In this document: one piece after another, positions 39,342 through 51,178 of the stretch
Position numbering within the stretch: position 1 is the first letter of the stretch
How the letters are laid out: each line of letters opens with the position of its first letter
NCBI GenBank assembly: GCA_030833905.1
Contig: JAURGG010000003.1
Location: 1-62,858, forward strand
Direction: 5' to 3'
DNA from: Schleiferiaceae bacterium
GTDB taxonomy: Bacteria > Bacteroidota > Bacteroidia > Flavobacteriales > Schleiferiaceae
Length of the DNA: 62,858 bases
The notes under the pieces: model-generated
Databases searched by the model: none
What the model saw: only the letters and a program-made list of their open reading frames with translations
What the model was told of the DNA's origin: nothing
Made by a program: the position numbers and the translations under genes

Positions 39342-40316
39342 ATGCCCCTATTCGACGTTCGAAGCCCTTCAGAATTTGCCAACGGCCACGCGCCGGGAGC
39401 CATTTCGCTGCCCTTGTTCAGCGACGACGAGCGGGCTGAAGTCGGAACCGTCTACAAGCAGAAGTCCCCCGCCAAAGCGGTGCGGCTGGGCCTGAAGTAC
39501 GCAGGACTGCGCATGGCCGACTTGGTGGCTGAAGTGGACGCCCGAGTCAAGCGCGACGCCACCCCCGTCGAAGTCTACTGCTGGCGCGGAGGCCAACGCA
39601 GCGGATCCGTAGCTTGGTTGCTCGGTACGGCCGGATACGACGTGCACCGCTGGGAAGGCGGCTACAAAGCATACCGCGGGCGGGTGCTCGAATCTTGGGG
39701 TTCGGAACGACCCTACGTCGTGCTCGCAGGCCTCACCGGATCGGGTAAAACTGAGGTACTTCGCGCCATGCTCGAACTGGGTGGACCAGTTTTGGACCTT
39801 GAGGGGTTGGCGAACCACAAGGGTTCCGCATTTGGTCAGATTGGCGAGCTGCCGCAGCCCACCAACGAACAGTTTGAGAACGACGGAGCCGTGCGCCTAG
39901 CCGAGCTCGACGGGCAGCCACGGATTTGGATTGAGGACGAATCGCGGTCCATTGGGCGTATTTGGCTGCAGCAGAGCTTTTTTGCGCACAAAAAATCGGC
40001 TCCGGTGGTGCTGCTTGAACGGAGTCTTGACGAACGGATTGAGCGACTGGTGGCAGCCTACGGCCAAGCTTCCCGCGAAGAGCTTGCCGAAACGTTTGTA
40101 CGCATCTCTAAGCGCTTGGGCGACCAAAATGCTCGGGCCGCCGTGGACCACGTCCATCAAGGCAACCTAGCTGACGCCGCCCGAATTGCGCTGCACTACT
40201 ACGACCGAACCTATGCCGAGAGCGTAGCCGCCCGGACCGAAACCATCACCGCCCGCCTGGACGGCACCGGCAAGAGCGACACCGAAGTCGCCCGCGAACT
40301 CCAAACACTTGTATGA
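39342..40316 (+). CDS. mnmH: tRNA 2-selenouridine synthase
   Basis: Converts 2-thiouridine at tRNA position 34 to 2-selenouridine via a geranylated intermediate, using selenophosphate. 324 residues: an N-terminal rhodanese domain with active-site Cys80 in YCWRGGQRS, and a P-loop domain with GLTGSGKTEVL (about 130-140). Both halves are complete. It lies directly before selD with an ATGA overlap, so enzyme and selenium donor supply are made together. No selenocysteine machinery is visible, so the selenium here is probably for tRNA. Confidence 0.95.
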   Translation: MPLFDVRSPSEFANGHAPGAISLPLFSDDERAEVGTVYKQKSPAKAVRLGLKYAGLRMADLVAEVDARVKRDATPVEVYCWRGGQRSGSVAWLLGTAGYDVHRWEGGYKAYRGRVLESWGSERPYVVLAGLTGSGKTEVLRAMLELGGPVLDLEGLANHKGSAFGQIGELPQPTNEQFENDGAVRLAELDGQPRIWIEDESRSIGRIWLQQSFFAHKKSAPVVLLERSLDERIERLVAAYGQASREELAETFVRISKRLGDQNARAAVDHVHQGNLADAARIALHYYDRTYAESVAARTETITARLDGTGKSDTEVARELQTLV

Positions 40317-41356
40317 AACTCACTGAATTCAACCCTGGATCCGGATGCGGATGCAAACTCGGCCCCGAAGCGCTGCAGTGCATACTCGGCGCCAGTGGAG
40401 TCCGATCCAGCGATGACTGGCCCCAGCTTTGGGTGGGCCACGAACACGCCGACGACGCCGCAGTGGTTGACCTCGGCGACGGCCGCGGACTCGTGCAAAC
40501 CGTCGACTTTTTTACCCCAATTGTCGACGACCCCTATGACTTTGGTCGGATTGCGGCCACCAACGCGCTTAGCGACGTCTACGCGATGGGCGGAACACCC
40601 ATTTCGGCATTGGCACTGCTCGCGTGGCCGATCGAGCGACTGCCTGCAGAGTTGGCGGGCCGCGTAATTGAAGGCGCTCGGGACGTTTGCCGCGAAGCCG
40701 GAATTCCGCTCGCCGGCGGCCACAGCATCGACATTCCCGAACCTCTTTTTGGCCTCAGCGTCAGTGGCATCGTCGACAAGCCTCACCTCAAAACTAACAG
40801 CCAAGCCCAGACCGGCGACGTGCTCTTTTTGACCAAACCCCTAGGCTTGGGCATTTTGGCCACCGCCACCAAGCGCGGAACCGCCACCGATTCCGACCGA
40901 GAATGGGCGCTCGCCACCATGCTCACCCGCAACGACATCGGGCCCAAATTGGCCGAAATACCGGGAGTCCACAGCATGACAGACGTAACCGGGTTCGGTC
41001 TTGCAGGGCACCTGCTCGAAGTGGCCAGCGCCAGTGGCTTAAGGGCAGAGCTCGACATGGCCAAGGTGGCGACTTACGACCCCGAACGCCTGCGGGCACT
41101 CTACCTGCAGTTCTGCCTGCCGAACTTGACGACGACAAACTACCGCGCTATTCAACCCGACTCGAGTCCGATGGACGGATACACGATGGCTGTACTTTGC
41201 GACCCCCAAACCAGTGGCGGACTGCTCGTGTTTGCGAGTGCCGACGCGGCGGCGCAGGTGCGCGAAGCCTTAGCGGCCAAAGGACTAAACGCTGAGCCCA
41301 TTGGGCGAATGGCGGACTTTGACGCGAGAATTCCGCGGCTTTCGTTCACAGAATAA
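40313..41356 (+). CDS. selD: Selenide, water dikinase (selenophosphate synthetase)
   Basis: Makes selenophosphate from selenide and ATP. 347 residues of the PurM/AIRS fold. The catalytic N-terminal loop reads SGCGCKLGP with Cys12 (Cys, not selenocysteine) and Lys15; then HADDAAVV, QTVDFFTPIVDDPYDFGRIA, DVYAMGG and LAGGHSIDIPEPLFGLSVSG, all standard. Second gene of mnmH-selD. Its end is followed by an ArsR operator and an arsenic cassette. Confidence 0.97.
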   Translation: MKLTEFNPGSGCGCKLGPEALQCILGASGVRSSDDWPQLWVGHEHADDAAVVDLGDGRGLVQTVDFFTPIVDDPYDFGRIAATNALSDVYAMGGTPISALALLAWPIERLPAELAGRVIEGARDVCREAGIPLAGGHSIDIPEPLFGLSVSGIVDKPHLKTNSQAQTGDVLFLTKPLGLGILATATKRGTATDSDREWALATMLTRNDIGPKLAEIPGVHSMTDVTGFGLAGHLLEVASASGLRAELDMAKVATYDPERLRALYLQFCLPNLTTTNYRAIQPDSSPMDGYTMAVLCDPQTSGGLLVFASADAAAQVREALAAKGLNAEPIGRMADFDARIPRLSFTE

Positions 41357-41379
41357 AAAGATCCGTCGGCGTATCGTAA

Positions 41380-41397
41380 TATTGCAATGTAGCAATA
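41380..41397. promoter_or_regulatory. ArsR-type operator
   Basis: TATTGC-AATGTA-GCAATA, perfect six-base arms, 10 bases before the arsR start. A near -7 box TAATATTG (41377-41384) overlaps its left arm, so bound ArsR would block transcription. Confidence 0.7.
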
Positions 41398-41407
41398 AAG
41401 CGAACCC

Positions 41408-41728
41408 ATGGGAACCAGCCATACCGAATCGTTCACCCCAGAGCACCTTGCGCTCGCCGAACTCTTTAAGGCATTGGGCCATCCGGCCCGGCTCGCCATC
41501 GTCAATGCCATCGCGGCACAGCAGGCCTGCGTCTGCGGAGAATTCGTAGCGATTACGGGACTTTCGCAAGCGACGGTGAGCCAGCACCTCAAAGAGCTCA
41601 AGTCGGCCGGTATCATTCACGGAAGCATTCAGGGACCAAAAACCTGCTACTGTCTTTCGCCGAGCGCGTTAGGGCTCCTCAAGGATAGTGTTGCGCAGCT
41701 TCAAACTCCGTCAGATTCATGCTGCTAG
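41408..41728 (+). CDS. arsR: ArsR/SmtB family arsenic-responsive repressor
   Basis: 106 residues, winged helix: FKALGHPARLAIVNAI, then ACVCGEF with the Cys41/Cys43 pair in the position of the classic ELCVCDL arsenite site, and LSQATVSQHLKELKSAG as recognition helix. More Cys residues in CYCLSP and the terminal SDSCC could complete a trivalent arsenic site. First gene of arsR-arsC-acr3, and the palindrome just upstream is its probable operator. Confidence 0.92.
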   Translation: MGTSHTESFTPEHLALAELFKALGHPARLAIVNAIAAQQACVCGEFVAITGLSQATVSQHLKELKSAGIIHGSIQGPKTCYCLSPSALGLLKDSVAQLQTPSDSCC

Positions 41729-42261
41729 GTGCCGCCAAAGACGTGCGGCCCGCAGCCGAGGCCATCTCGGCGGCACTGGCTCAGGGGCCCATTCAGTTGC
41801 TCTTTGTGTGCACCCACAATTCGCGGCGCAGTCAGCTTTCTGAGGCCATCGCTGCCCACCGGTTGAGGAATGATGCTCGAATAACCGTTCGAAGCTGCGG
41901 TACCGAACAGACCGCCTGCCATCCCTCTACTGCTCAAGCGCTTGAGGATTTGGGCTGGGAGGTCCGCGACTTAGGCCAGGGGCGCTTTCACGTGCACATG
42001 GATGAAACCAACTGTACGCTCCATTCAAAAACGCTCGATGAAGTTCCGCGCGACCTTCCCATCGTGGCGATGATGACCTGCGCCGAGGCCGACGAGGCCT
42101 GCCCGGCCATTGTGGGGGCGGTGGCGCGGATTCCGTGGCGCTACCCCGACCCCAAAACCGCAGACGGCACCCCCGATTCCCGCGCAACCTACCGCACTGT
42201 GGCCGAAGCCATTGCCCGCGACCTCGACGCCCTTTATCTCGAACTCAAGCTGACCCCGTGA
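41719..42261 (+). CDS. arsC: Low-molecular-weight phosphatase-fold arsenate reductase
   Basis: 180 residues of the LMW-PTPase fold. The anion loop is LLFVCTHNSRRSQLSEA with Cys31 (Cx5R); further Cys residues (SCGTEQTACHP, MMTCAEADEACP) could carry the disulfide relay used by thioredoxin-linked arsenate reductases; the Asp of PDPK near the C-terminus matches the general acid. An N-terminal extension of about 25 residues precedes the core. It overlaps arsR by ten bases and acr3 by four. A tyrosine-phosphatase role is possible in the fold but unlikely in this operon. Confidence 0.85.
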   Translation: MLLGAAKDVRPAAEAISAALAQGPIQLLFVCTHNSRRSQLSEAIAAHRLRNDARITVRSCGTEQTACHPSTAQALEDLGWEVRDLGQGRFHVHMDETNCTLHSKTLDEVPRDLPIVAMMTCAEADEACPAIVGAVARIPWRYPDPKTADGTPDSRATYRTVAEAIARDLDALYLELKLTP

Positions 42262-43271
42262 AGTTTCTCGACAAGTACCTGACCCTTTGGATTTTTGCGG
42301 CCATGGCGGCCGGAGTCTCGCTCGGCGCATTCACCGACGTGGAATCCTACCTCGACACGGCGCCCGGGAGCATGCACCCCGGTCTTGCGCTGGGATTGAT
42401 TGCGATGATGCTTCCGCCCTTGGCCAAAGTGAATCTGCGCGAACTCCCCCACGTGTTTGCACGCACGAAGCTGTTGACCACCTCGCTCCTGCTCAATTGG
42501 GTCGTCGGACCAATCTTTATGTTTGCCCTGGCGTGGATTTTTGTGCGCGACCAGCCGGCCTACTTCAACGGACTCATTCTCATCGGATTGGCGCGATGCA
42601 TCGCCATGGTCGTGGTGTGGAACGACCTCGCCTGCGGCAACCGCGAATACGCCGCCGGACTCGTGGGCCTCAACAGCATCTTTCAAATGCTCTTTTATGC
42701 CGCATATGCGGGCTTCTTTCTCAATGTGGTTCCGGCGTGGCTCGGAATGGCTGAACAGACCGTGAGCATTGACGCCCGGTTGGTGGCCGAAAGCGTGCTG
42801 GTCTACCTCGGAATCCCCTTCGCACTCGGCCAACTGCTGCGTTGGGTCAGCATTCGGGCGCGCGGCGAACAGTGGTTCAGCGAAGTCCTCGCTCCGCGGA
42901 TTTCGCCCGTGACCCTCGTCGCGTTGCTGGCCACCATTGTACTCATGTTTTCGCTCAAGGGCGACCAGGTACTCGCTTTGCCATGGGACGTGCTTCGGCT
43001 CGCCGTTCCACTGGCAATCTACTTTGTGGGCATGTTTGGATTCACCTTTTGGCTTGCCAAGCGCCAGGGCGCCGACTACCCGACGACGGCCGCGCTTTCG
43101 TTTACTTCTGCCGGAAACAACTTCGAGCTGGCCATCGCCGTCGCCATTGCGAGCTTCGGACTCGGATCCGGCGAAGCGTTTGCGGGAGTGATTGGGCCGT
43201 TAATTGAGGTTCCGGCACTCATTCTGCTGGTCCAGGTAGCACTAAAGGCACGTGCTCGCTTTGTAGCTTAG
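42258..43271 (+). CDS. acr3: Arsenite efflux transporter Acr3
   Basis: 337-residue carrier with about 10 membrane helices that exports arsenite by proton exchange. Family marks: ARCIAMVVVWNDLACGNREYAAG holding the conserved Cys of helix 4, LAWIFVRDQPAYFNGLILIG before it, and TSAGNNFELAIAVAI near the C-terminus. The GTG at 42258 overlaps the arsC stop as GTGA; longer in-frame sequence upstream belongs to arsC in another frame. End of the arsenic cassette. Confidence 0.95.
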   Translation: MKFLDKYLTLWIFAAMAAGVSLGAFTDVESYLDTAPGSMHPGLALGLIAMMLPPLAKVNLRELPHVFARTKLLTTSLLLNWVVGPIFMFALAWIFVRDQPAYFNGLILIGLARCIAMVVVWNDLACGNREYAAGLVGLNSIFQMLFYAAYAGFFLNVVPAWLGMAEQTVSIDARLVAESVLVYLGIPFALGQLLRWVSIRARGEQWFSEVLAPRISPVTLVALLATIVLMFSLKGDQVLALPWDVLRLAVPLAIYFVGMFGFTFWLAKRQGADYPTTAALSFTSAGNNFELAIAVAIASFGLGSGEAFAGVIGPLIEVPALILLVQVALKARARFVA

Positions 43272-43275
43272 CCCC

Positions 43276-43698
43276 ATGGGAGCCTTCACCACCACCTACC
43301 TCGGCAGCCTGCGCTGCGAGAACCTTCACGAGCAATCCGGAACCCGCATCCTCACCGATGCACCTACCGACAACCAGGGTCAAGGTTCCGCCTTTTCGCC
43401 CACCGACCTGTGCGCACTTAGTCTGACGACGTGTATTGTCACCACGATGGGGATTTATGCACACATGAAGGAGTTTTCAATCCTCGCCGCCGAGGCAACG
43501 ACCCACAAGCACATGGCCAACGATCCGCGGCGCATTGCCCGAATCGAGGTGCACCTCACCTTAACCCTTGCGGCAGACGGGACCGAGCGACAAGAGGAAG
43601 GGCTTCGCCGCATTGCGAACACGTGTCCGGTTTCGCGCAGCCTGCATCCCGAGATTGACCAGGACGTGCACCTGACGTTTCTGAGGGCCGAAGCCTAA
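43276..43698 (+). CDS. OsmC family peroxiredoxin-like protein
   Basis: 140 residues. The two reactive Cys of OsmC/Ohr proteins are in place: Cys53 in SLTTCIVTTMG and Cys117 in NTCPVSRSLHP. The family reduces organic hydroperoxides with lipoyl or other thiol partners; which branch (OsmC or YhfA-like) is uncertain. It starts four bases after acr3; a weak box TAGCTTAG (43264-43271) ends exactly four bases before the ATG, so it may have its own start as well as read-through from the ars operon. Its stop codon abuts that of the convergent PLP decarboxylase-like gene. Confidence 0.9.
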   Translation: MGAFTTTYLGSLRCENLHEQSGTRILTDAPTDNQGQGSAFSPTDLCALSLTTCIVTTMGIYAHMKEFSILAAEATTHKHMANDPRRIARIEVHLTLTLAADGTERQEEGLRRIANTCPVSRSLHPEIDQDVHLTFLRAEA

Positions 43699-44943
43699 CT
43701 AAAACCCTTCGGGTATGAACGGATTGACGCGCGGACTGAGTTCCGTGATCGTTTGGCGCGCGTAGTCCACGCCGTAGACAGCCGGAATGGTGCGCGAAGT
43801 GTGACGCGACCAGAGGGCGTATGCGTTGGAACCGGTTCCGAGGTAGAGCATTTGGTCGCCCGCCTTGAGTGCGGGTTGCTGCACGCTCTTCTCGAGGTAG
43901 TCGCCCGCAAAGCAGAGCGGACCGGCGAGGTCGGTGAGCACGCGTTCACCTTCTAGGGTTTGGCCGTCGCGCACCGGAAGCCAGTGAATTCCGCGCGGCT
44001 TGACGTACGCGTCGCGCAGCAAAAAGTCCGCACCGAGGTGCAGGTAGGCCACTTGGCGGTCGCCGCGCTGCAGCACCCATTCCACGTCACTCAGGGCATA
44101 ACCCGTGTGAAAATGGGTCCACTGGCCAAACTCCGTCACGAGCGCGTAGTCGGTCCAAAGCTCGGGCAGCAACTCGCGAAGCCGCGAGGCGTATGCGGTC
44201 ATTTGCTCCGCCGTCCCGCCGACAAGGTGTTCGGGGAGCAGGCCTCCGCCGACGTCAAGCGTGTGAATTCGTCGTTCGGAACCGGCCAAAGTGAGCGCTT
44301 CGTTGCAGCGCGCCGCCAGGTCCCGAAGCCGGGTGAGGGCGCGCACGGCTCCGTCAAAATTCCGCATCGACGAACCCGAATGCACGTGAAGCGCTTCAAC
44401 CGGGTACTGAAGGACGGCCTGAACAATGGCGTCAGTGTTCGCGATGGGTTCGCCAAATTTGGACTCGTCGCCGCTCACATGGTAGACGCTGGGCGCGTCC
44501 GTCTCGACCATGGGATTGATGCGAAGGCCGACCGTGAGGCGGTTGGCATGCGGCCCGATGCGCTCCAGCTCTTCGATGCTGTTGGCGTTAAGGAGCATTC
44601 CGGGGCTGTGGGCCGCGCAGTCGGCGATTTCGTGCGGACGCTTCACGGGCGAGTCAAAGACGATGCGCTCTGGGGGGCAGCCCGCGGCGCGTGCGAGGCG
44701 CACCTCTTCCCAAGTTGCGGCTTCGAGTCCGAACCCGCGCTGCACGATGTGCTTGAGCACTTCAACGTGGGGTTGGGACTTTACCGCCACCGCATGGTTG
44801 CAGCGGGAGTGTGCCCATGCCGACGCCAACGCGTTCAACTGGGCGTCTAGGGCGTTCAGTGACACAAAGAGCACGGCCGAGTCCTCAGGGGCTCGCGGAA
44901 CCTGGCGTGCCGCCCAAAGGGCTTCTTCGTGCAGCGGATGCAT
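43699..44943 (-). CDS. Fold-type III PLP enzyme, Orn/DAP decarboxylase-like, unknown substrate
   Basis: 414 residues with an alanine racemase-like TIM barrel and a C-terminal beta domain. The PLP lysine is Lys55 in HAVAVKSQPH; further family marks are ALHVHSGSS (about 187-195), HTLDVGGGLL (phosphate loop, about 224) and the C-terminal GPLCFAGDYLE, which corresponds to the GPxC...D active-site element of decarboxylases. It differs in sequence from LysA and SpeC, and no lysine or polyamine gene is near. Third gene of an operon with a fold-type I PLP protein (two-base gap) and a papain-like protein. Decarboxylase, racemase or epimerase activity on an amino acid or amino-acyl conjugate is possible. 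Confidence 0.8.
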   Translation of the reverse strand: MHPLHEEALWAARQVPRAPEDSAVLFVSLNALDAQLNALASAWAHSRCNHAVAVKSQPHVEVLKHIVQRGFGLEAATWEEVRLARAAGCPPERIVFDSPVKRPHEIADCAAHSPGMLLNANSIEELERIGPHANRLTVGLRINPMVETDAPSVYHVSGDESKFGEPIANTDAIVQAVLQYPVEALHVHSGSSMRNFDGAVRALTRLRDLAARCNEALTLAGSERRIHTLDVGGGLLPEHLVGGTAEQMTAYASRLRELLPELWTDYALVTEFGQWTHFHTGYALSDVEWVLQRGDRQVAYLHLGADFLLRDAYVKPRGIHWLPVRDGQTLEGERVLTDLAGPLCFAGDYLEKSVQQPALKAGDQMLYLGTGSNAYALWSRHTSRTIPAVYGVDYARQTITELSPRVNPFIPEGF

Positions 44944-44945
44944 GT

Positions 44946-46331
44946 CTAGGACTCAAAAAGTTCGATGGCGGTGCGCTCGATCAAGTCCACCACGTGCAGG
45001 TCGTTGTAGGGATCAAATCCGTTGGGCTCCATCAGCTTGCGGATTGAGTACGACCCAAGGGCAAGGCGAATGAACGAGCGCTTACCATAGCGCACGGGCT
45101 GGCACAAAAAGATTCGTTTGCATCCGTTTAAACTCGGGTGTTCACGAAGCACCAACGTATCAAAAAGCTTTTTTAGGTCGTCGTAGTCCAGCTCGCGTCC
45201 ACCGGCCGAAACCGTAAACGAAATAATGCTGTCGTTGGTCAGCTCCATGTCAGGCATCATGCCGAAGCGGTCGCTCAGTGCAAGGCGGCCAATCACCACA
45301 CGGCTCCAACGGCGAATCAGCGCGTCGGTTTCTTCTTGCGGAATCCCCAGGTAGGCCTCCATCTCGTCAAGGGCAATCTCCCAACGAAGGCGTAGGCCGG
45401 CGTTGGCGTGGCCGGGCCAAATTGCGCGAATTTGGGGCAGGTCGGGTGGCGCATCCGCTGCGGTAAACAGGCGGCCGTAGTCGCGCAAATGCTCGGCAGG
45501 CTGCCCCATGAGCAGCTCGGTCCAAAACTTCGGAACCAGCAGCGCCCCGCAAAACGGCGGAGCCTGGTAGAACTTCGATCCAGTCACCATGAGCATGACG
45601 CCCTTGGACAGCAGCTGGTGCACTAGAGTACGGTGCGTGCGGAACTGGCACATGTCCACAACCCACATGACCCCCTCGCGGAACTCGTCGATGATGTCGA
45701 GGTCGTCCTTGATTCCTGACTTGGACCCGAACACCAGATTGCCCACAATGGGCTGACCGGGGCGCGCCGCGATGATGTCGCGAATGGCCTGCTTGCGGTC
45801 GGCAATGTGGCCACTCACCTCGCGGGCTGGCAAAAACTGAACGTCGACCTGAAACGAGTCCGTGACGAGCTCGCCCTTAGGCACGGCGTCGCCGTACTGG
45901 TTGGTGTTCGCATAGTACTTGCCTTCGGCGGCCAAAATCGAACCTGAACCGAGCTCTTCGGGGCAGCTCACTATGTTGGTAATCGTTTGACCCGGGTGCA
46001 GCATGGACTGCATCAGAAGCGGCCAGTACATCATGTCGCTGCCCGACGGGCCATAGTAAATGTGGAACTCGTCGCCGCGTCCGCCGTCGAATAACGTTTG
46101 CATACGTTTCGTCTGCTCGCGAATCCACGACGCGTCGTCAGCCGTCCGGTAGTCCCGCACAAATCGCTCGGCGCTGAGGTGGCCGTCGGGGGTAAGGGTT
46201 CCGCACGTGCAGGAACCTCGCATCAGAAGCCCCTCATACTTCGTGGGGTGCAGGTGGTACTGGTTGGCGCCGGTTTCGGAGCGAATGGCGATGCGCTCGT
46301 CGCAGCCCGAAAGCAATAGTTCTTCAATCAT
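44946..46331 (-). CDS. Fold-type I PLP-dependent enzyme, aminotransferase-like, unknown substrate
   Basis: 461 residues. An N-terminal segment with two Cys (RGSCTCGTLTPDG) precedes an aminotransferase-type core: cofactor loop YYGPSGSDMMYW (about 92-103), VVDMCQFRTHR with Asp226 that would contact the PLP nitrogen, and the Schiff-base Lys253 in MVTGSKFYQAPPF. The layout resembles class V enzymes (cysteine desulfurase or kynureninase branch), but the desulfurase Cys loop is not evident and I know no close family by name. It starts in an ATGA overlap with the papain-like gene and is two bases before the fold-type III gene, so three products are made in fixed ratio. Confidence 0.78.
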   Translation of the reverse strand: MIEELLLSGCDERIAIRSETGANQYHLHPTKYEGLLMRGSCTCGTLTPDGHLSAERFVRDYRTADDASWIREQTKRMQTLFDGGRGDEFHIYYGPSGSDMMYWPLLMQSMLHPGQTITNIVSCPEELGSGSILAAEGKYYANTNQYGDAVPKGELVTDSFQVDVQFLPAREVSGHIADRKQAIRDIIAARPGQPIVGNLVFGSKSGIKDDLDIIDEFREGVMWVVDMCQFRTHRTLVHQLLSKGVMLMVTGSKFYQAPPFCGALLVPKFWTELLMGQPAEHLRDYGRLFTAADAPPDLPQIRAIWPGHANAGLRLRWEIALDEMEAYLGIPQEETDALIRRWSRVVIGRLALSDRFGMMPDMELTNDSIISFTVSAGGRELDYDDLKKLFDTLVLREHPSLNGCKRIFLCQPVRYGKRSFIRLALGSYSIRKLMEPNGFDPYNDLHVVDLIERTAIELFES

Positions 46332-47371
46332 TCTTTAATGCGGTAGGCCCGATGCTTCAGGCCGTTACTCTGTTCAATGGTGAGCCAACCAAAGTGGCTG
46401 TCGTGCACGAGGCGCGCCTCAGACTGACCGAGCTGGCGCACCAGCGCCTCTTCGGCCTCAAAATGGCCGGTAAAGTCGTGTTCGCCCGAATAGGCGTGGC
46501 GTTCACCCACAAGGATGCGGTCTGCAGATGCCTGCGTGCGGTACCAGGCCCCCTCGCCGATTCCGCCTAAGTACACGAAGTCCCCCGGAACCACTTCGGG
46601 ACGTACCGAAGGCTCGTCGAGCTTGCCCACCACTTCGTCGCGGTGCAAATGCCCCGTTTTGCTGCGGCTTACCGAGGCAAAAATGTTAGCGGTGACATCC
46701 CACCAGGCTTTAATCAGAGGGGCCTGCTTCCATTCGGCATGACCGTTGCGCCATTCGAGGTAGCGCTCGCCGTCTTGGGCCGCGGCCAGTACATTAAAGT
46801 ACGGAGTCGGAGCCGTGTAGGTCACAGGACGCTTGTAGCGCGAATAGTGGGCGGGTTCGTGGTCAATGCCTGCAAGCAGGGATGTTTGCACAAACCGCGC
46901 ACAGTTGGTTTGCTTGGGGTCCAACCCGTGGTAGCCAATCAGGCCGCCAAACTGCAGGTCGCGCGCTTTGGTTTCGACCTTGTGCACGTCCGGAGTGTAG
47001 TATGCGCTTAACTGAAGCAAGCCTTCACCATGCGTCGTTGCCGACTTGGCGTCGAGCTCGCGGCAGACCGCATCAATGTTGGTCAGTCGGCCCTGCTCGT
47101 CCCACTGCGGAACCGTCGCAAACGACAGCGCGGGATCGGTCTCGGCGGACCGAATTCGCCCCATGCGACGCGGAGTAATGTAGCGGCCAAAATCGTAGTA
47201 CCGAAGCGAAGAGCCCTCAGCAATCATCATGGCTGCATGGCCCACCATCATGTTGACGTTTTTAACCACACCGATTGTGCGCAGAAACTTCACAATTCCC
47301 TCTTCGCCTCGAGCAGTCACCTCAGGCCATGCCAGCACCAAAACAGCGGAGTTCCGCGGCAAATTCGCCAT
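46328..47371 (-). CDS. Papain-like (permuted NlpC/LRAT-type) protein heading the PLP operon, probably DUF6695 family
   Basis: 347 residues from ATG 47371. I see the marks of a circularly permuted papain-like fold: an early His45 in MMVGHAAMMI followed by RYYDFGRYI, and a late Cys157 in TNCARFVQTSLL, i.e. the GHA ... NCxxFV pattern of LRAT/NlpC relatives. The rest (YTAPTPYFNVLAAAQDG, VPGDFVYLGGIGEG) is unfamiliar. I believe it belongs to a flavobacterial family called DUF6695, from memory only. It may be a peptidase, amidase or acyltransferase. A CACCTTTG box lies six bases before the start. It is divergent from the sulfide operon. Confidence 0.7.
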   Translation of the reverse strand: MANLPRNSAVLVLAWPEVTARGEEGIVKFLRTIGVVKNVNMMVGHAAMMIAEGSSLRYYDFGRYITPRRMGRIRSAETDPALSFATVPQWDEQGRLTNIDAVCRELDAKSATTHGEGLLQLSAYYTPDVHKVETKARDLQFGGLIGYHGLDPKQTNCARFVQTSLLAGIDHEPAHYSRYKRPVTYTAPTPYFNVLAAAQDGERYLEWRNGHAEWKQAPLIKAWWDVTANIFASVSRSKTGHLHRDEVVGKLDEPSVRPEVVPGDFVYLGGIGEGAWYRTQASADRILVGERHAYSGEHDFTGHFEAEEALVRQLGQSEARLVHDSHFGWLTIEQSNGLKHRAYRIKE

Positions 47372-47477: not shown

Positions 47478-48740
47478 ATGAACACATTTGACGTACTTAT
47501 TGTCGGCGGCGGAACCGGCGGAATCATGACCGCAGCGCAAATTCGCCGCAAACTTCCGAAGCTAAGCGTGGCCGTTTTTGAGCCCAGCGAAGACCACTGG
47601 TACCAGCCCGCCTGGACGCTTGTGGGCGCCGGGACCTTTAACATGGCCGCGACCAAGCGCAAAACCGCGACCTACATGCCCAAGGGCGCCACGTGGATCA
47701 AAGAGCGCATCGGCAGCCTTCAACCCGAACACAACCAAGTCACCACCGAAGGCGGGACCGCCTACGGATACCGCTACCTCATCCTTAGTCCTGGTTTGAT
47801 CTACGACATGAGCTTGCTCCCTGGCCTGGCTGAAGCACTTGAGACACCGTTTGTCTGCTCCAACTACATCGATCCCGAAAAGACGTGGGAAATTCTCAAG
47901 AATTTCAAAGGCGGAAACGCCGTATTCACGCAGCCCAGTACCCCCATAAAGTGCGGAGGTGCGCCGCAAAAGATCATGTACTTAGCCGAACACTACTTCA
48001 GAAAGCACGAAATTCGCGAGAAGACGAATGTTGTCTATGCGGCGCCCGGCGGCGTCATATTTGGCGTCAAAGAATTCGCCAAAACGCTCAACCACATTAT
48101 CTCAAGTCGCAACATCATTTTTAAGCCTTTCTACGCTCCAGTCCGTATCGACAGTGCGGCCAAGACCATCACCTTTCGCTACAACACCGCGATGGCTGGC
48201 AACGATTGCTTGACTCAGAAAAATGTCAAGCTTCACGAAGAAGTCAGCGGCGACACCGAAATGGTGATGCCGTACGACATGCTGCACTTGGCTCCGCCCC
48301 AGACGGCCCCGAAGTTCATCCAGCACAGCCCCTTGGCCGTAGCCGAAGGCCCAAACAAGGGTTGGCTCGAGGTAGACATCCACAAGTTGAACAGCCCCAA
48401 GTTTCCGAATGTCTTCGGAATCGGCGACAGCGCCGCGCTTCCGACCGCCAAAACCGGAGCGGCAATTCGCAAGCAGGCCCCGGTCGTGGTGGAGCAGATT
48501 CGCGCCGCCGAAGCCCACACCACCTCGCCCATCAGGTACGAAGGCTACTCGAGCTGTCCGTTGGTAACCGGCTACGGCAAAATGCTCTTAGCGGAATTCA
48601 AGTACGACAACGTGCGCGACAGCGATCCGTTAATCAGCACCTTTGTCGACACCACCAAAGAGTCATGGCTCATGTGGATCCTCAAGAAGTACGGCCTGCC
48701 CTACCTCTACTGGAACCAAATGCTTCGCGGAAAGATGTAA
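47478..48740 (+). CDS. sqr: Sulfide:quinone oxidoreductase (type II-like)
   Basis: Flavoprotein at the membrane surface that oxidises sulfide and passes electrons to quinone, giving a thiol persulfide or polysulfide. 420 residues. FAD-binding VLIVGGGTGGIMTAAQIRR (residues 6-24), the two redox Cys: Cys159 in PIKCGGAPQKIMYL and Cys360 in YSSCPLVTGYGKM, and the second FAD stretch FPNVFGIGDSAALPTAKTGAA. A third Cys of type I enzymes is not evident. This is the human SQOR-like branch. It heads sqr-tauE-persulfide dioxygenase, and a CRP/FNR-type site lies upstream. Confidence 0.95.
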   Translation: MNTFDVLIVGGGTGGIMTAAQIRRKLPKLSVAVFEPSEDHWYQPAWTLVGAGTFNMAATKRKTATYMPKGATWIKERIGSLQPEHNQVTTEGGTAYGYRYLILSPGLIYDMSLLPGLAEALETPFVCSNYIDPEKTWEILKNFKGGNAVFTQPSTPIKCGGAPQKIMYLAEHYFRKHEIREKTNVVYAAPGGVIFGVKEFAKTLNHIISSRNIIFKPFYAPVRIDSAAKTITFRYNTAMAGNDCLTQKNVKLHEEVSGDTEMVMPYDMLHLAPPQTAPKFIQHSPLAVAEGPNKGWLEVDIHKLNSPKFPNVFGIGDSAALPTAKTGAAIRKQAPVVVEQIRAAEAHTTSPIRYEGYSSCPLVTGYGKMLLAEFKYDNVRDSDPLISTFVDTTKESWLMWILKKYGLPYLYWNQMLRGKM

Positions 48741-48761
48741 ATCAAGTGAACGGTCTTCAGA

Positions 48762-48788
48762 ACTTCGGTCGCCGTGTGCGACCGAAGT
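48762..48788 (+). terminator. Strong hairpin between sqr and tauE
   Basis: Perfect 11-base arms (48762-48772 and 48778-48788) with a five-base loop. Only CACTTT follows, so termination may be partial; it could instead protect the sqr message end. Confidence 0.55.
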
Positions 48789-48813
48789 CACTTTAGACCT
48801 GTTCTAAAAAGTT

Positions 48814-48821
48814 CAATTTTG
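48814..48821 (+). promoter_or_regulatory. -7 box (CAATTTTG) of tauE
   Basis: One mismatch to TAnnTTTG; five bases (CGGTC) before ATG 48827. Together with the hairpin upstream it suggests a second promoter within the operon. Confidence 0.45.
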
Positions 48822-48826
48822 CGGTC

Positions 48827-49630
48827 ATGATCATCATTGCCTACCTCGCTTCACTACTCATTGGCCTATCGCTTGGACTTCTCGGCGGAGGCGGATCAAT
48901 TCTGACCCTGCCGGTACTTGTGTACCTCTTTGGGATTGACACAGTAGATGCTACCGCCTACTCGCTCTTTATTGTGGGGGCAACAGCACTGGCGAGTATA
49001 GTGCCCAAAGCGCGCGCTGGAGAAGTAGACTTTAAAACGGCCCTCTGGTTTGGCCTACCATCTGTTGCGGCGGTCTACTTCACCCGGTCGGTCATCATGC
49101 CCGCAATTCCGGACCCCATTTGGACCTCTGGCGATTTCGCCTTTGGCAAGGGAACCACCCTCATGCTGCTCTTTGCCGTGCTCATGGTGTGGGCAGCCCG
49201 CGGAATGATCAAGGGACGCAAACCTGCCGACGCGAATGCACCCAAAAAAGAACTCAGTCCGGCCGCCAAGGTGGGCTTAGTTCTCGCTGAAGGCGCAGGC
49301 GTCGGAATCCTCACCGGGCTCGTGGGCGCCGGCGGCGGATTTTTGATCATTCCAGCCCTCGTGCTCGTAACCGGTCTCGAAATGAAGGTAGCCGTGGGTA
49401 CTTCGCTTACCATCATCGCATTCAAATCGCTTATCGGATTCACCGGCGACCTCGACCACATGGACGCCGACTGGACGCTGCTTTTGAGCGTGACCGCAAT
49501 CGCCATCGTCGGAATGGTTGTTGGAACCATCCTGTCCAAGCGCATTGCCTCTGGGCCCCTTCAAAAGGCTTTTGGCTGGTTTGTGCTGGTTATGGGCATC
49601 TTTATTTTGACCAAAGAATTTTTATCGTAA
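48827..49630 (+). CDS. TauE/SafE family sulfite or sulfur-anion exporter
   Basis: 267-residue membrane protein with about eight helices in two related halves. The repeated Gly-rich family motif appears as GLSLGLLGGGGSILTLPVLV (residues 14-33) and GILTGLVGAGGGFLIIPALV (about 160-179). Members export sulfite, sulfoacetate or related anions, and one is part of the staphylococcal cst operon. Between sqr and a persulfide dioxygenase it should remove sulfite or thiosulfate formed from sulfide. The dioxygenase gene starts 30 bases downstream. Confidence 0.92.
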   Translation: MIIIAYLASLLIGLSLGLLGGGGSILTLPVLVYLFGIDTVDATAYSLFIVGATALASIVPKARAGEVDFKTALWFGLPSVAAVYFTRSVIMPAIPDPIWTSGDFAFGKGTTLMLLFAVLMVWAARGMIKGRKPADANAPKKELSPAAKVGLVLAEGAGVGILTGLVGAGGGFLIIPALVLVTGLEMKVAVGTSLTIIAFKSLIGFTGDLDHMDADWTLLLSVTAIAIVGMVVGTILSKRIASGPLQKAFGWFVLVMGIFILTKEFLS

Positions 49631-49660
49631 ACCTACCCTTGACGTAACTTGAAACCCACT

Positions 49661-51178
49661 ATGAACGTAGAACAGATTTACACCGGATGCTTGGCTCAAG
49701 GAGCCTACTTTATCTCGTCAAACGGCGAAGCCGTGGTCATTGACCCCTTGCGCGAAACCAAGCCCTACCTCGATCGTGCTGAGACTTTGGGGGTAAAAAT
49801 CAAGTACATCCTTGAGACCCACTTTCACGCAGATTTCGTGTCGGGCCACGTCGCACTTTCAAAAGCTACGGGTGCCCCGATTGTCTACGGTCCCAACGCC
49901 AACCCTGAATTTGAGGCCCACATCGCCACAGACAGAGAGGTATTAAATGTGGGTAACGTGACCATTGAGGTCTTGCACACCCCCGGCCACACCATGGAAT
50001 CTACATGCTACGTGCTTCGAAACGAGGCCGGCGAGCAAGTGGCCATCTTCTCGGGCGACACCCTCTTTTTGGGTGACGTAGGCCGTCCTGATCTGGCGCA
50101 AAAGGCTGCGAGCATGACCCAAGAGGATCTCGCGAGCATCCTCTTTGACTCGCTGCGCACCAAGATCATGACCCTTCCGCCGTCCATCACCGTGTACCCA
50201 GGCCACGGAGCCGGTTCAGCCTGCGGCAAAAACATGAGCAAAGAGACCGTCGGAACCCTCGCCGAGCAGCTCGAAACCAACTACGCGCTTCGCGCCGACA
50301 TGACCCGCGAAGAGTTCATCAAAGAAGTGACCGACGGACTGGGCGTGCCCCCCGCCTACTTCCCGATGAACGTGGCTATGAACAAAAAAGCGATTCCTGG
50401 TGCCGAAGAAGTTCTTGCCGAATCATCCAAAGCATTTGAGCCCGTTGCCTTCAAGGCTATGGTGGGCGAAATGGACGCACTTGTGCTCGACACGCGCAAG
50501 CCAGACGATTTTGCGGCCGGTCACGTTCCCGGATCGATCAACATCGGCATCGACGGCCAATTCGCTCCGTGGGTAGGTGCATTGATTCCGACCGACCAAA
50601 CCTTGATGATCGTGTGCGAGCCCGGTCGCGAAGACGAGGTCATTACGCGTTTGACCCGTGTGGGATACGACCGTGTACTGGGCTACCTCGAGGGCGGAAT
50701 CGCCACGTGGACCCAAGCCGGAATGGAGACCGACACCGTGACCCGGATTACCGCAACCGAACTGGCTGAGCGCCTCGCGGCCAAGCCTGAGCTGAACATC
50801 ATCGACGCACGCAAAGAGGGCGAATGGACGGCCCAAAACCTTCCGCAAGCCAAAAACATTGCGCTTGACGATCTGAATGCGAAGTTCAACGAGCTTCCTA
50901 CCGGCAGCACCATGCACATTCACTGTGCGGGCGGCTACCGTTCAATGATCTATGCTTCCATCCTCAAGAGCCGCGGAATCCACGACCTCGTGGACGTCAT
51001 CGGCGGTTTTGGTGCCATCAAGGACACTCCAGGCCTCGAAACGAGCGCCTACGTGTGCCCAAGCACGCTCAAGAAGCTTGAAGAAGAAAAGGCAGCAGCT
51101 TCTGCAGCCGCCGAGCCCGTGGTTGCGGGGGACGCACCCAAAGGCTTCATGGGCTGGCTGAAGAGCTTGCTCGGTTAA
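49661..51178 (+). CDS. Metallo-beta-lactamase/double rhodanese protein, CstB- or ETHE1-like persulfide dioxygenase (copy 2)
   Basis: 505 residues, paralogue of the product at 16801-18219. The dioxygenase domain shows THFHADFVSGH, HTPGHT and YPGHGAGSACGKNMS. The first rhodanese keeps a Cys in the active loop (VCEPGRED) where copy 1 has Thr; the second has HCAGGYRS in both. Extra here is a C-terminal tail of about 40 residues, Ala/Glu rich and ending in an amphipathic PKGFMGWLKSLLG that may touch the membrane, where SQR sits. ATG 49661 is chosen over a TTG four codons upstream because copy 1 starts at the same point. Last gene of the sulfide operon, followed by a good terminator. Confidence 0.88.
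   Translation: MNVEQIYTGCLAQGAYFISSNGEAVVIDPLRETKPYLDRAETLGVKIKYILETHFHADFVSGHVALSKATGAPIVYGPNANPEFEAHIATDREVLNVGNVTIEVLHTPGHTMESTCYVLRNEAGEQVAIFSGDTLFLGDVGRPDLAQKAASMTQEDLASILFDSLRTKIMTLPPSITVYPGHGAGSACGKNMSKETVGTLAEQLETNYALRADMTREEFIKEVTDGLGVPPAYFPMNVAMNKKAIPGAEEVLAESSKAFEPVAFKAMVGEMDALVLDTRKPDDFAAGHVPGSINIGIDGQFAPWVGALIPTDQTLMIVCEPGREDEVITRLTRVGYDRVLGYLEGGIATWTQAGMETDTVTRITATELAERLAAKPELNIIDARKEGEWTAQNLPQAKNIALDDLNAKFNELPTGSTMHIHCAGGYRSMIYASILKSRGIHDLVDVIGGFGAIKDTPGLETSAYVCPSTLKKLEEEKAAASAAAEPVVAGDAPKGFMGWLKSLLG

What the first reader, a model, noticed from the sequence alone, without database searches (positions are those of the whole stretch)
43699..47371. Undescribed operon: papain-like protein plus two PLP enzymes of different folds
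A permuted NlpC/LRAT-like protein (His45, Cys157), a fold-type I PLP enzyme (Lys253) and a fold-type III PLP enzyme (Lys55) are coupled by a four-base overlap and a two-base gap. I know no pathway with this trio. Possible chemistry: the papain-like protein forms or cuts an amide, and the PLP enzymes transaminate, racemise or decarboxylate the amino acid part, giving a modified amino lipid, siderophore piece or cell-wall amino acid. This is my best candidate for a new system in the window.
Basis: inference. Interest (0 to 1): 0.7.

Follow-up and report, generated by a model that had tools for sequence, protein, structure and literature searches.

The report
Conserved amine-making operon with papain-like enzyme
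Three neighbouring genes in a tiny-genomed water bacterium form a real, conserved and undescribed team, most likely two vitamin-B6 enzymes that make and decarboxylate an acidic amino acid and a papain-like enzyme that attaches the resulting amine to a lipid, which would be a new way to build a membrane or surface molecule.

Summary
A (46328-47371, permuted papain-like, His45/Cys157 kept in every homologue aligned), B (44946-46331, fold-type I PLP, Lys253, in no Pfam/NCBIfam family) and C (43699-44943, fold-type III PLP, Lys55) overlap by 4 bases and are 2 bases apart.

B-C is the core. C follows B in 72 of 76 testable loci, in several families and phyla; A is a recruited third part. C is not LysA: its invariant Phe345 replaces the Glu that reads DAP, and true lysA coexists with it elsewhere.

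New clue: A's relatives sit next to unrelated decarboxylases: a second PanD (often with a cysteine/cysteate-synthase-like enzyme) in the sister clade, and a CSAD/GADL1-like enzyme in others. B homologues pair with a group-II decarboxylase in Rhizobium, or follow NRPS genes.

Best explanation: B makes an acidic amino acid, C decarboxylates it to a taurine/beta-alanine-type amine, and A transfers an acyl group to it. Substrate identities and A's direction are inferred. Undescribed pathway built from known folds.

The parts
46328..47371 (-). Gene A: permuted papain-like (TseH/YiiX/LRAT-type) domain + DUF6695 C-terminal domain; His45, Cys157; no signal peptide seen by eye
   Evidence: PF25218, PF20405; model pLDDT 86; TseH 6v98 Z 16.4, YiiX 2if6 Z 7.9; His/Cys kept in all 58 homologues aligned
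44946..46331 (-). Gene B: fold-type I PLP enzyme of a family in no library searched; SG(S/T)D, E126, S203-K204, D226xxQ229xR231, TGSK253, R316-W317, R422 conserved
   Evidence: no family, no PDB match; NifS/AGT fold; 85 homologues
43699..44943 (-). Gene C: fold-type III PLP decarboxylase, relative of DapDC/ODC; Lys55, His188, Glu271, Cys344 kept; Phe345 at the substrate-reading position
   Evidence: (56 homologues: GPLCF[AGS]GD invariant)
46328..46331 (-). Four-base overlap, stop of A and start of B
44944..44945 (-). Two-base gap between B and C (a four-base overlap in most homologous loci)
47478..51178 (+). Divergent neighbours: sulfide:quinone reductase-like, TauE/SafE sulfite-exporter family, persulfide-dioxygenase/rhodanese-like; syntenic with the trio in genera g1 and g12 only, possible sulfite source, not shown to belong

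Best explanation
A small biosynthetic operon. B, a PLP enzyme of the class V (NifS/AGT) fold, forms or modifies an acidic amino acid, most likely by beta-substitution on a serine derivative. C decarboxylates that amino acid to an amine that keeps a negatively charged end: a taurine/beta-alanine-type amine (cysteate to taurine is the favoured guess, aspartate to beta-alanine the alternative). A, a permuted papain-like enzyme using Cys157/His45, then transfers an acyl group, probably a fatty acyl from a phospholipid, to the amine, giving an N-acyl amino lipid. Shown here: the genes, folds, conserved catalytic residues, conserved linkage, and the repeated pairing of A and of B with non-homologous decarboxylases. 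Inferred: order of steps, substrate, and that A acylates the amine rather than cleaving an amide or ester. In relatives without A the same B-C pair often lies in capsule/LPS loci, where the amine would be put on a polysaccharide.
For: (1) The trio is a unit: A-B-C in 27 of 80 loci, in at least five different genomic contexts; 19 of 22 genomes of the genus have A and B, 3 lack both; A is also present in 3 of 4 g6 genomes where it lies elsewhere in the genome. (2) C follows B in 72 of 76 testable loci (L135). (3) A's nearest relatives outside the trio (sister clade, 100/99 support) lie beside PanD, in f17 genera and in G315, often as PALP-A-PanD; that PanD is a second copy, the housekeeping panD being next to panC elsewhere. 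In f11, A lies directly beside a decarboxylase whose best PDB matches are CSAD and GADL1. (4) B's own partner is swapped too: a group-II decarboxylase with a 1-base overlap in Rhizobium. (5) C keeps catalytic Cys344 and R310/Y313 but has invariant Phe345 for the amine-reading Glu/Asp of DapDC/ODC. (6) Sulfonate hints: PALP's best NCBIfam match in f17 is cysteate synthase, below cut-off; a 690-aa B relative lies beside true CapA in one Flavobacterium-type genus, another in a cluster with CysH; sulfur-oxidation genes flank the trio in g1 and g12. (7) Permuted NlpC/P60 enzymes, TseH included, act on lipid acyl groups, and Bacteroides Lnb is an N-acyltransferase (PMC12994826).
Against: No substrate was tested. 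Many A homologues have no decarboxylase neighbour (G158, G251, G196, G140, G204, G064, G035, G056, the Lrp-linked paralogue, Aureibacter). The sulfur-gene neighbours do not travel with the trio into Crocinitomicaceae or g6. The CapA adjacency is convergent and confined to one genus. PALP is far below the CapA cut-off (288 vs 600). A could equally be a hydrolase. B could be an aminotransferase or lyase acting on C's product. In f11 panD is missing, so the CSAD-like enzyme there may simply make beta-alanine for CoA.
Confidence: 0.36

Rival explanations
1. B-C makes an amine that decorates a surface polysaccharide, joined by an amide bond by an Asn-synthase-like enzyme where one is present; A in the Schleiferiaceae clade replaces that enzyme or trims the product.
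For: B-C lies among capsule/LPS genes in Saprospiraceae incl. Portibacter and others; an Asn-synthase-like gene follows B-C directly in f14 and in L156; C has weak similarity to the exosortase-A-associated decarboxylase TIGR03099.
Against: In the trio-bearing genomes the surroundings are not polysaccharide genes; the Asn-synthase partner occurs in only a few lineages; A's other relatives are not in polysaccharide loci.
Confidence: 0.25
2. B is an aminotransferase or lyase acting after C, and the operon degrades an acidic amino acid or amine (taurine-type catabolism), with A releasing it from a conjugate.
For: B's fold neighbours include AEP:pyruvate transaminase and alanine:glyoxylate transaminase (Z about 25); A could hydrolyse an amide or ester.
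Against: B homologues sit beside NRPS genes, where a supplied building block is expected; B-C sits in capsule biosynthesis loci; no catabolic genes or transporters travel with the trio.
Confidence: 0.15
3. C supplies lysine in place of LysA in these reduced genomes.
For: No lysA over cut-off in any of 22 genomes of the genus; C is a DapDC relative.
Against: C scores 127 bits against a cut-off of 298; five other genomes carry both C and a true lysA; three genomes of the genus lack C as well; the DAP-reading Glu is an invariant Phe.
Confidence: 0.04
4. A is an effector-like or peptidoglycan-cutting enzyme next to an unrelated B-C pair by chance.
For: A's best structural match is an effector, TseH; B-C exists without A.
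Against: No defence or secretion genes recognised in the loci read; A-B-C order kept across at least five contexts; A and B co-occur even when unlinked; A's relatives repeatedly have decarboxylase neighbours.
Confidence: 0.08

Closest known systems
TseH / permuted NlpC/P60 (YiiX, LRAT, DUF4105/Lnb) superfamily
   Same: A's N-terminal domain has the fold (Z 16.4 to TseH), the His-before-Cys order and both residues; Pfam TseH-like over cut-off
   Different: A carries a DUF6695 domain, is linked to amino-acid enzymes, has no effector context in the loci read; activity unknown
Diaminopimelate decarboxylase LysA and ODC (fold-type III)
   Same: Both Pfam domains, Lys55, His188, Glu271, Cys344
   Different: Far below the LysA cut-off, Phe345 for Glu/Asp, coexists with true LysA
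Class V aminotransferase / NifS cysteine desulfurase fold
   Same: B's predicted fold, DxxQ and TGSK motifs
   Different: 10-13% identity, no Pfam/NCBIfam match, own set of conserved residues (R170, S203-K204, R231, R316)
Cysteate synthase CapA and sulfonolipid (capnine) pathway
   Same: A B-family relative lies beside CapA in a Flavobacterium-type genus; the PALP beside A in f17 is nearest to CapA
   Different: The trio has no fold-type II enzyme and no CapB/CapC seen; the proposed product is an N-acyl amine, not a capnoid
PanD / CSAD / GADL1 acidic amino-acid decarboxylases
   Same: Occupy the place of C beside A homologues
   Different: Pyruvoyl or fold-type I group II enzymes, not homologous to C

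Membership tests
LysA (TIGR01048) | Score over the curated cut-off | tested here: not met
   127 bits vs 297.9
LysA (TIGR01048) | Glu after the catalytic Cys (CE motif) reading the distal amine of DAP | tested here: not met
   Invariant Phe345 in 56 homologues; CE in the aligned DapDCs; the role of Glu is from my knowledge of the literature
Fold-type III PLP decarboxylases (PF02784/PF00278) | Both domains, PLP lysine, catalytic Cys | tested here: met
Exosortase-A-associated decarboxylase (TIGR03099) | Score over the curated cut-off | tested here: not met
   70.6 vs 478 bits
Class V aminotransferase/desulfurase | Fold | tested here: met
   Z 26.7, 334 residues, 3.3 A to a NifS-like protein
Class V aminotransferase/desulfurase | Recognised by a family profile | tested here: not met
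   No Pfam or NCBIfam family at E 0.1
Cysteine desulfurase | Catalytic persulfide Cys in the C-terminal loop | tested here: inconclusive
   C228 and C261 are not kept across the family; C41 is kept in the B-C group only; geometry not examined
Permuted NlpC/P60 (TseH-like, PF25218) | Profile over cut-off, fold, His before Cys | tested here: met
TseH as T6SS effector | Secretion-system association | tested here: inconclusive
   No such genes recognised by eye in the neighbourhoods read; whole genomes not searched for them
N-acyltransferase (LRAT/Lnb type) | Acyl transfer from phospholipid | not testable with these tools
   needs an enzyme assay
Defence systems (PADLOC) | Profile match | tested here: not met
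   no match for A, B or C

The most novel reading that the evidence does not exclude
A family of interchangeable modules, unrecognised so far, in which a DUF6695 papain-like acyltransferase works with an acidic amino-acid decarboxylase that evolution has drawn from at least three unrelated folds (fold-type III, pyruvoyl PanD, group-II PLP) and often with an amino-acid-forming PLP enzyme (B or a cysteate-synthase-like one), to make an unknown class of N-acyl taurine/beta-alanine-type lipids in Bacteroidota.
Probability: 0.3. Interest if true: 0.75.

Novelty: new variant of a known kind. Interest (0 to 1): 0.58.

Why it matters
It gives a function lead for two uncharacterised families (DUF6695/TseH-like proteins and a PLP family absent from Pfam and NCBIfam) that are kept even in 1.6-Mb genomes of the Schleiferiaceae, a family whose public records here are largely aquatic MAGs. 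If right, it predicts an undescribed amine-containing lipid or surface molecule of Bacteroidota and a route to taurine-type amines that needs neither cysteine dioxygenase nor the known cysteate synthase. The clues make it directly testable with three genes in E. coli.

Tried and rejected
LysA replacement: rejected. Beta-alanine for CoA in the trio genomes: rejected, a housekeeping panD lies next to panC in G000, G012, G016, G020, G026 and G032. Defence system: no PADLOC match. A fused extra domain on C in g6 seemed present but is a run of N, withheld sequence, not pursued. B against PDB by profile: chance matches only. C homologues on Streptomyces/Arthrobacter plasmids: lone DapDC-like genes, no B annotated nearby. 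Literature on Y4yA, on cysteate synthase plus decarboxylase in Bacteroidetes, and on taurine lipids of marine bacteria: no paper held; DUF6695 occurs in one paper only.
Full report
What is there. A is a TseH-like permuted papain-like domain plus DUF6695; its model matches TseH (Z 16.4, 171 residues, 2.7 A) and then YiiX and a Bacillus relative. B matches no Pfam or NCBIfam family and no PDB chain by sequence, but its model (pLDDT 90.6) is a NifS/AGT-type class V fold. C has both domains of the DapDC/ODC fold-type III decarboxylases. The window comes from a 1.64-Mb genome; the nearest named record is a Cryomorphaceae MAG, UBA9924, 95% identical in B; other records of the same group are named Schleiferiaceae.

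Is it a unit? Yes. In 22 genomes of the genus A and B are both present in 19 and both absent in 3, adjacent in all where contigs allow. A scan of one genome per species found 309 relatives of B; of the 80 best loci, 27 have A-B-C in order, and C follows B in 72 of 76 that have sequence to show it (71, plus L135, the same locus as L023, where one search finds C); the four exceptions carry a FemAB/GNAT-like gene instead. The trio keeps together in at least five different surroundings: the SelD/sulfur island of g1, the g12 version, a PiT-phosphate-transporter context (L119, L121, L123, L124), and L122, L126, L127. In g6, A is unlinked but still present in three of four genomes; among 39 non-g1 family members A (full-length) occurs in 6 of 8 with B and 0 of 31 without (Fisher 9e-6, not corrected for kinship).

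B-C is the older core. It occurs without A in Saprospiraceae, Portibacter, Calditrichota and other MAGs, often among capsule genes: UDP-sugar dehydrogenases, DegT aminotransferases, NeuA/NeuB, Wzx (recognised by eye), and with an Asn-synthase-like gene directly behind it in f14 and L156. MAG labels of distant groups may be unreliable.

C is a decarboxylase of something other than DAP. All 56 aligned copies keep Lys55, His188, Glu271 and Cys344 and have GPLCF(A/G/S)GD: Phe345 where DapDC has Glu; R310 and Y313 are invariant. That Glu and the Arg/Tyr pair read the distal amine and carboxylate of DAP in solved enzymes (my knowledge, not tested here). True lysA is present beside C in the genomes G028, G073, G158, G251 and G412, so C is a different enzyme; lysA is missing from the whole genus g1. 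Together this points to a substrate with a distal anion but no distal amine.

The decisive context clue lies outside the window. A's nearest relatives (sister clade, 100/99 support) are in family f17 and in G315. There A lies beside PanD, in many cases as PALP-A-PanD with overlapping or nearly touching genes. This PanD is a second, divergent copy (124-134 bits); the pantothenate copy (163-177 bits) is next to panC elsewhere in each genome. In f11 (G070, G082, G093) a group-II PLP decarboxylase precedes A; for the one searched (G070) the best PDB matches are CSAD and GADL1, both acidic-amino-acid decarboxylases; in G318 such a gene lies one gene away. So three non-homologous decarboxylases, which for PanD, CSAD and GADL1 use aspartate, cysteate or cysteine sulfinate (established knowledge), take the same place. 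By rough estimate a random gene has a decarboxylase neighbour well under 1% of the time, so several separate pairings are unlikely by chance; a genome-wide count was not done, and at least eight other A lineages have no such neighbour.

B tells the same story. In Rhizobium tumorigenes and R. rhododendri the B homologue overlaps by one base a group-II PLP decarboxylase; in Sinorhizobium, R. jaguaris and Rhizobium sp. 007 it directly follows NRPS or large NRPS-like genes. An enzyme that makes or prepares an amino acid fits both. A 690-aa relative lies beside a true cysteate synthase (657 bits, cut-off 600) in one Flavobacteriaceae genus, and another is in a cluster with a PAPS reductase. The PALP beside A is nearest to cysteate synthase in f17 but below its cut-off. 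In g1 and g12 the trio is flanked by genes of the sulfide-to-sulfite type. Each sulfonate hint is weak alone; together they favour cysteate/taurine over aspartate/beta-alanine, modestly.

What A does. Permuted NlpC/P60 enzymes act on lipid acyl groups: LRAT-type acyltransferases, Tox-Act1 phospholipase, weak lipase activity of TseH, and Lnb, a lipoprotein N-acyltransferase of Bacteroides (PMC12994826). His45 and Cys157 are present in all 58 A homologues aligned. I therefore favour N-acylation of the amine made by C; hydrolysis cannot be excluded.

Verdict. Shown: genes, folds, conserved residues, linkage, non-homologous replacement of the decarboxylase. Inferred: acidic amino-acid substrate (about 0.55), taurine rather than beta-alanine (about 0.3 overall), N-acylation by A (about 0.45). 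No known pathway with this trio was found in the library searched.

Noticed in passing
39342-43698: Rhodanese-domain protein (selU/mnmH-like), SelD-like AIRS protein, ArsR regulator, low-MW phosphatase-like (arsenate-reductase-like) protein, SBF-family permease and OsmC beside the trio: a selenium/arsenic-type island (selU/selD names by motif, by eye).
   Followed up: partly
47478-51178: Sulfide:quinone reductase-like, TauE/SafE and metallo-beta-lactamase/rhodanese (persulfide dioxygenase-like) genes, divergent from A; the last of these is in 24 of the loci examined.
   Followed up: partly
genus of the window (22 genomes): No lysA over the curated cut-off in any genome, while sister genera of the family have it: probable lysine auxotrophy or an unknown lysine route.
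   Followed up: partly
L036, L039 and other g6 loci, directly after C: Run of N (withheld or masked stretch) that mimics a fused domain on C; not pursued.
   Followed up: no
L064, L065, L066, L068: 690-aa B-family protein convergent with a cysteate synthase CapA in one Flavobacteriaceae genus (for two of the four).
   Followed up: partly
L172, L180, L182, L183: B followed by a FemAB/GNAT-like gene instead of C in Crocinitomicaceae and MED-G20-type MAGs.
   Followed up: partly
L204-L206, L202, L263: A split into a TseH-like gene and a separate DUF6695 gene; NRDE-family gene overlapping upstream in L202, L199 and Emticicia.
   Followed up: no
L216, L223, L249, L250, L252, L253: Second A paralogue of f17 next to an Lrp/AsnC-like regulator instead of PanD (regulator by eye).
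   Followed up: no
L257, L259, L268, L269: Rhizobial plasmid NRPS(/PKS) clusters with a B homologue directly after the NRPS, plus PPTase and SagB-type or nitroreductase genes in some: possible unusual amino-acid supply.
   Followed up: no
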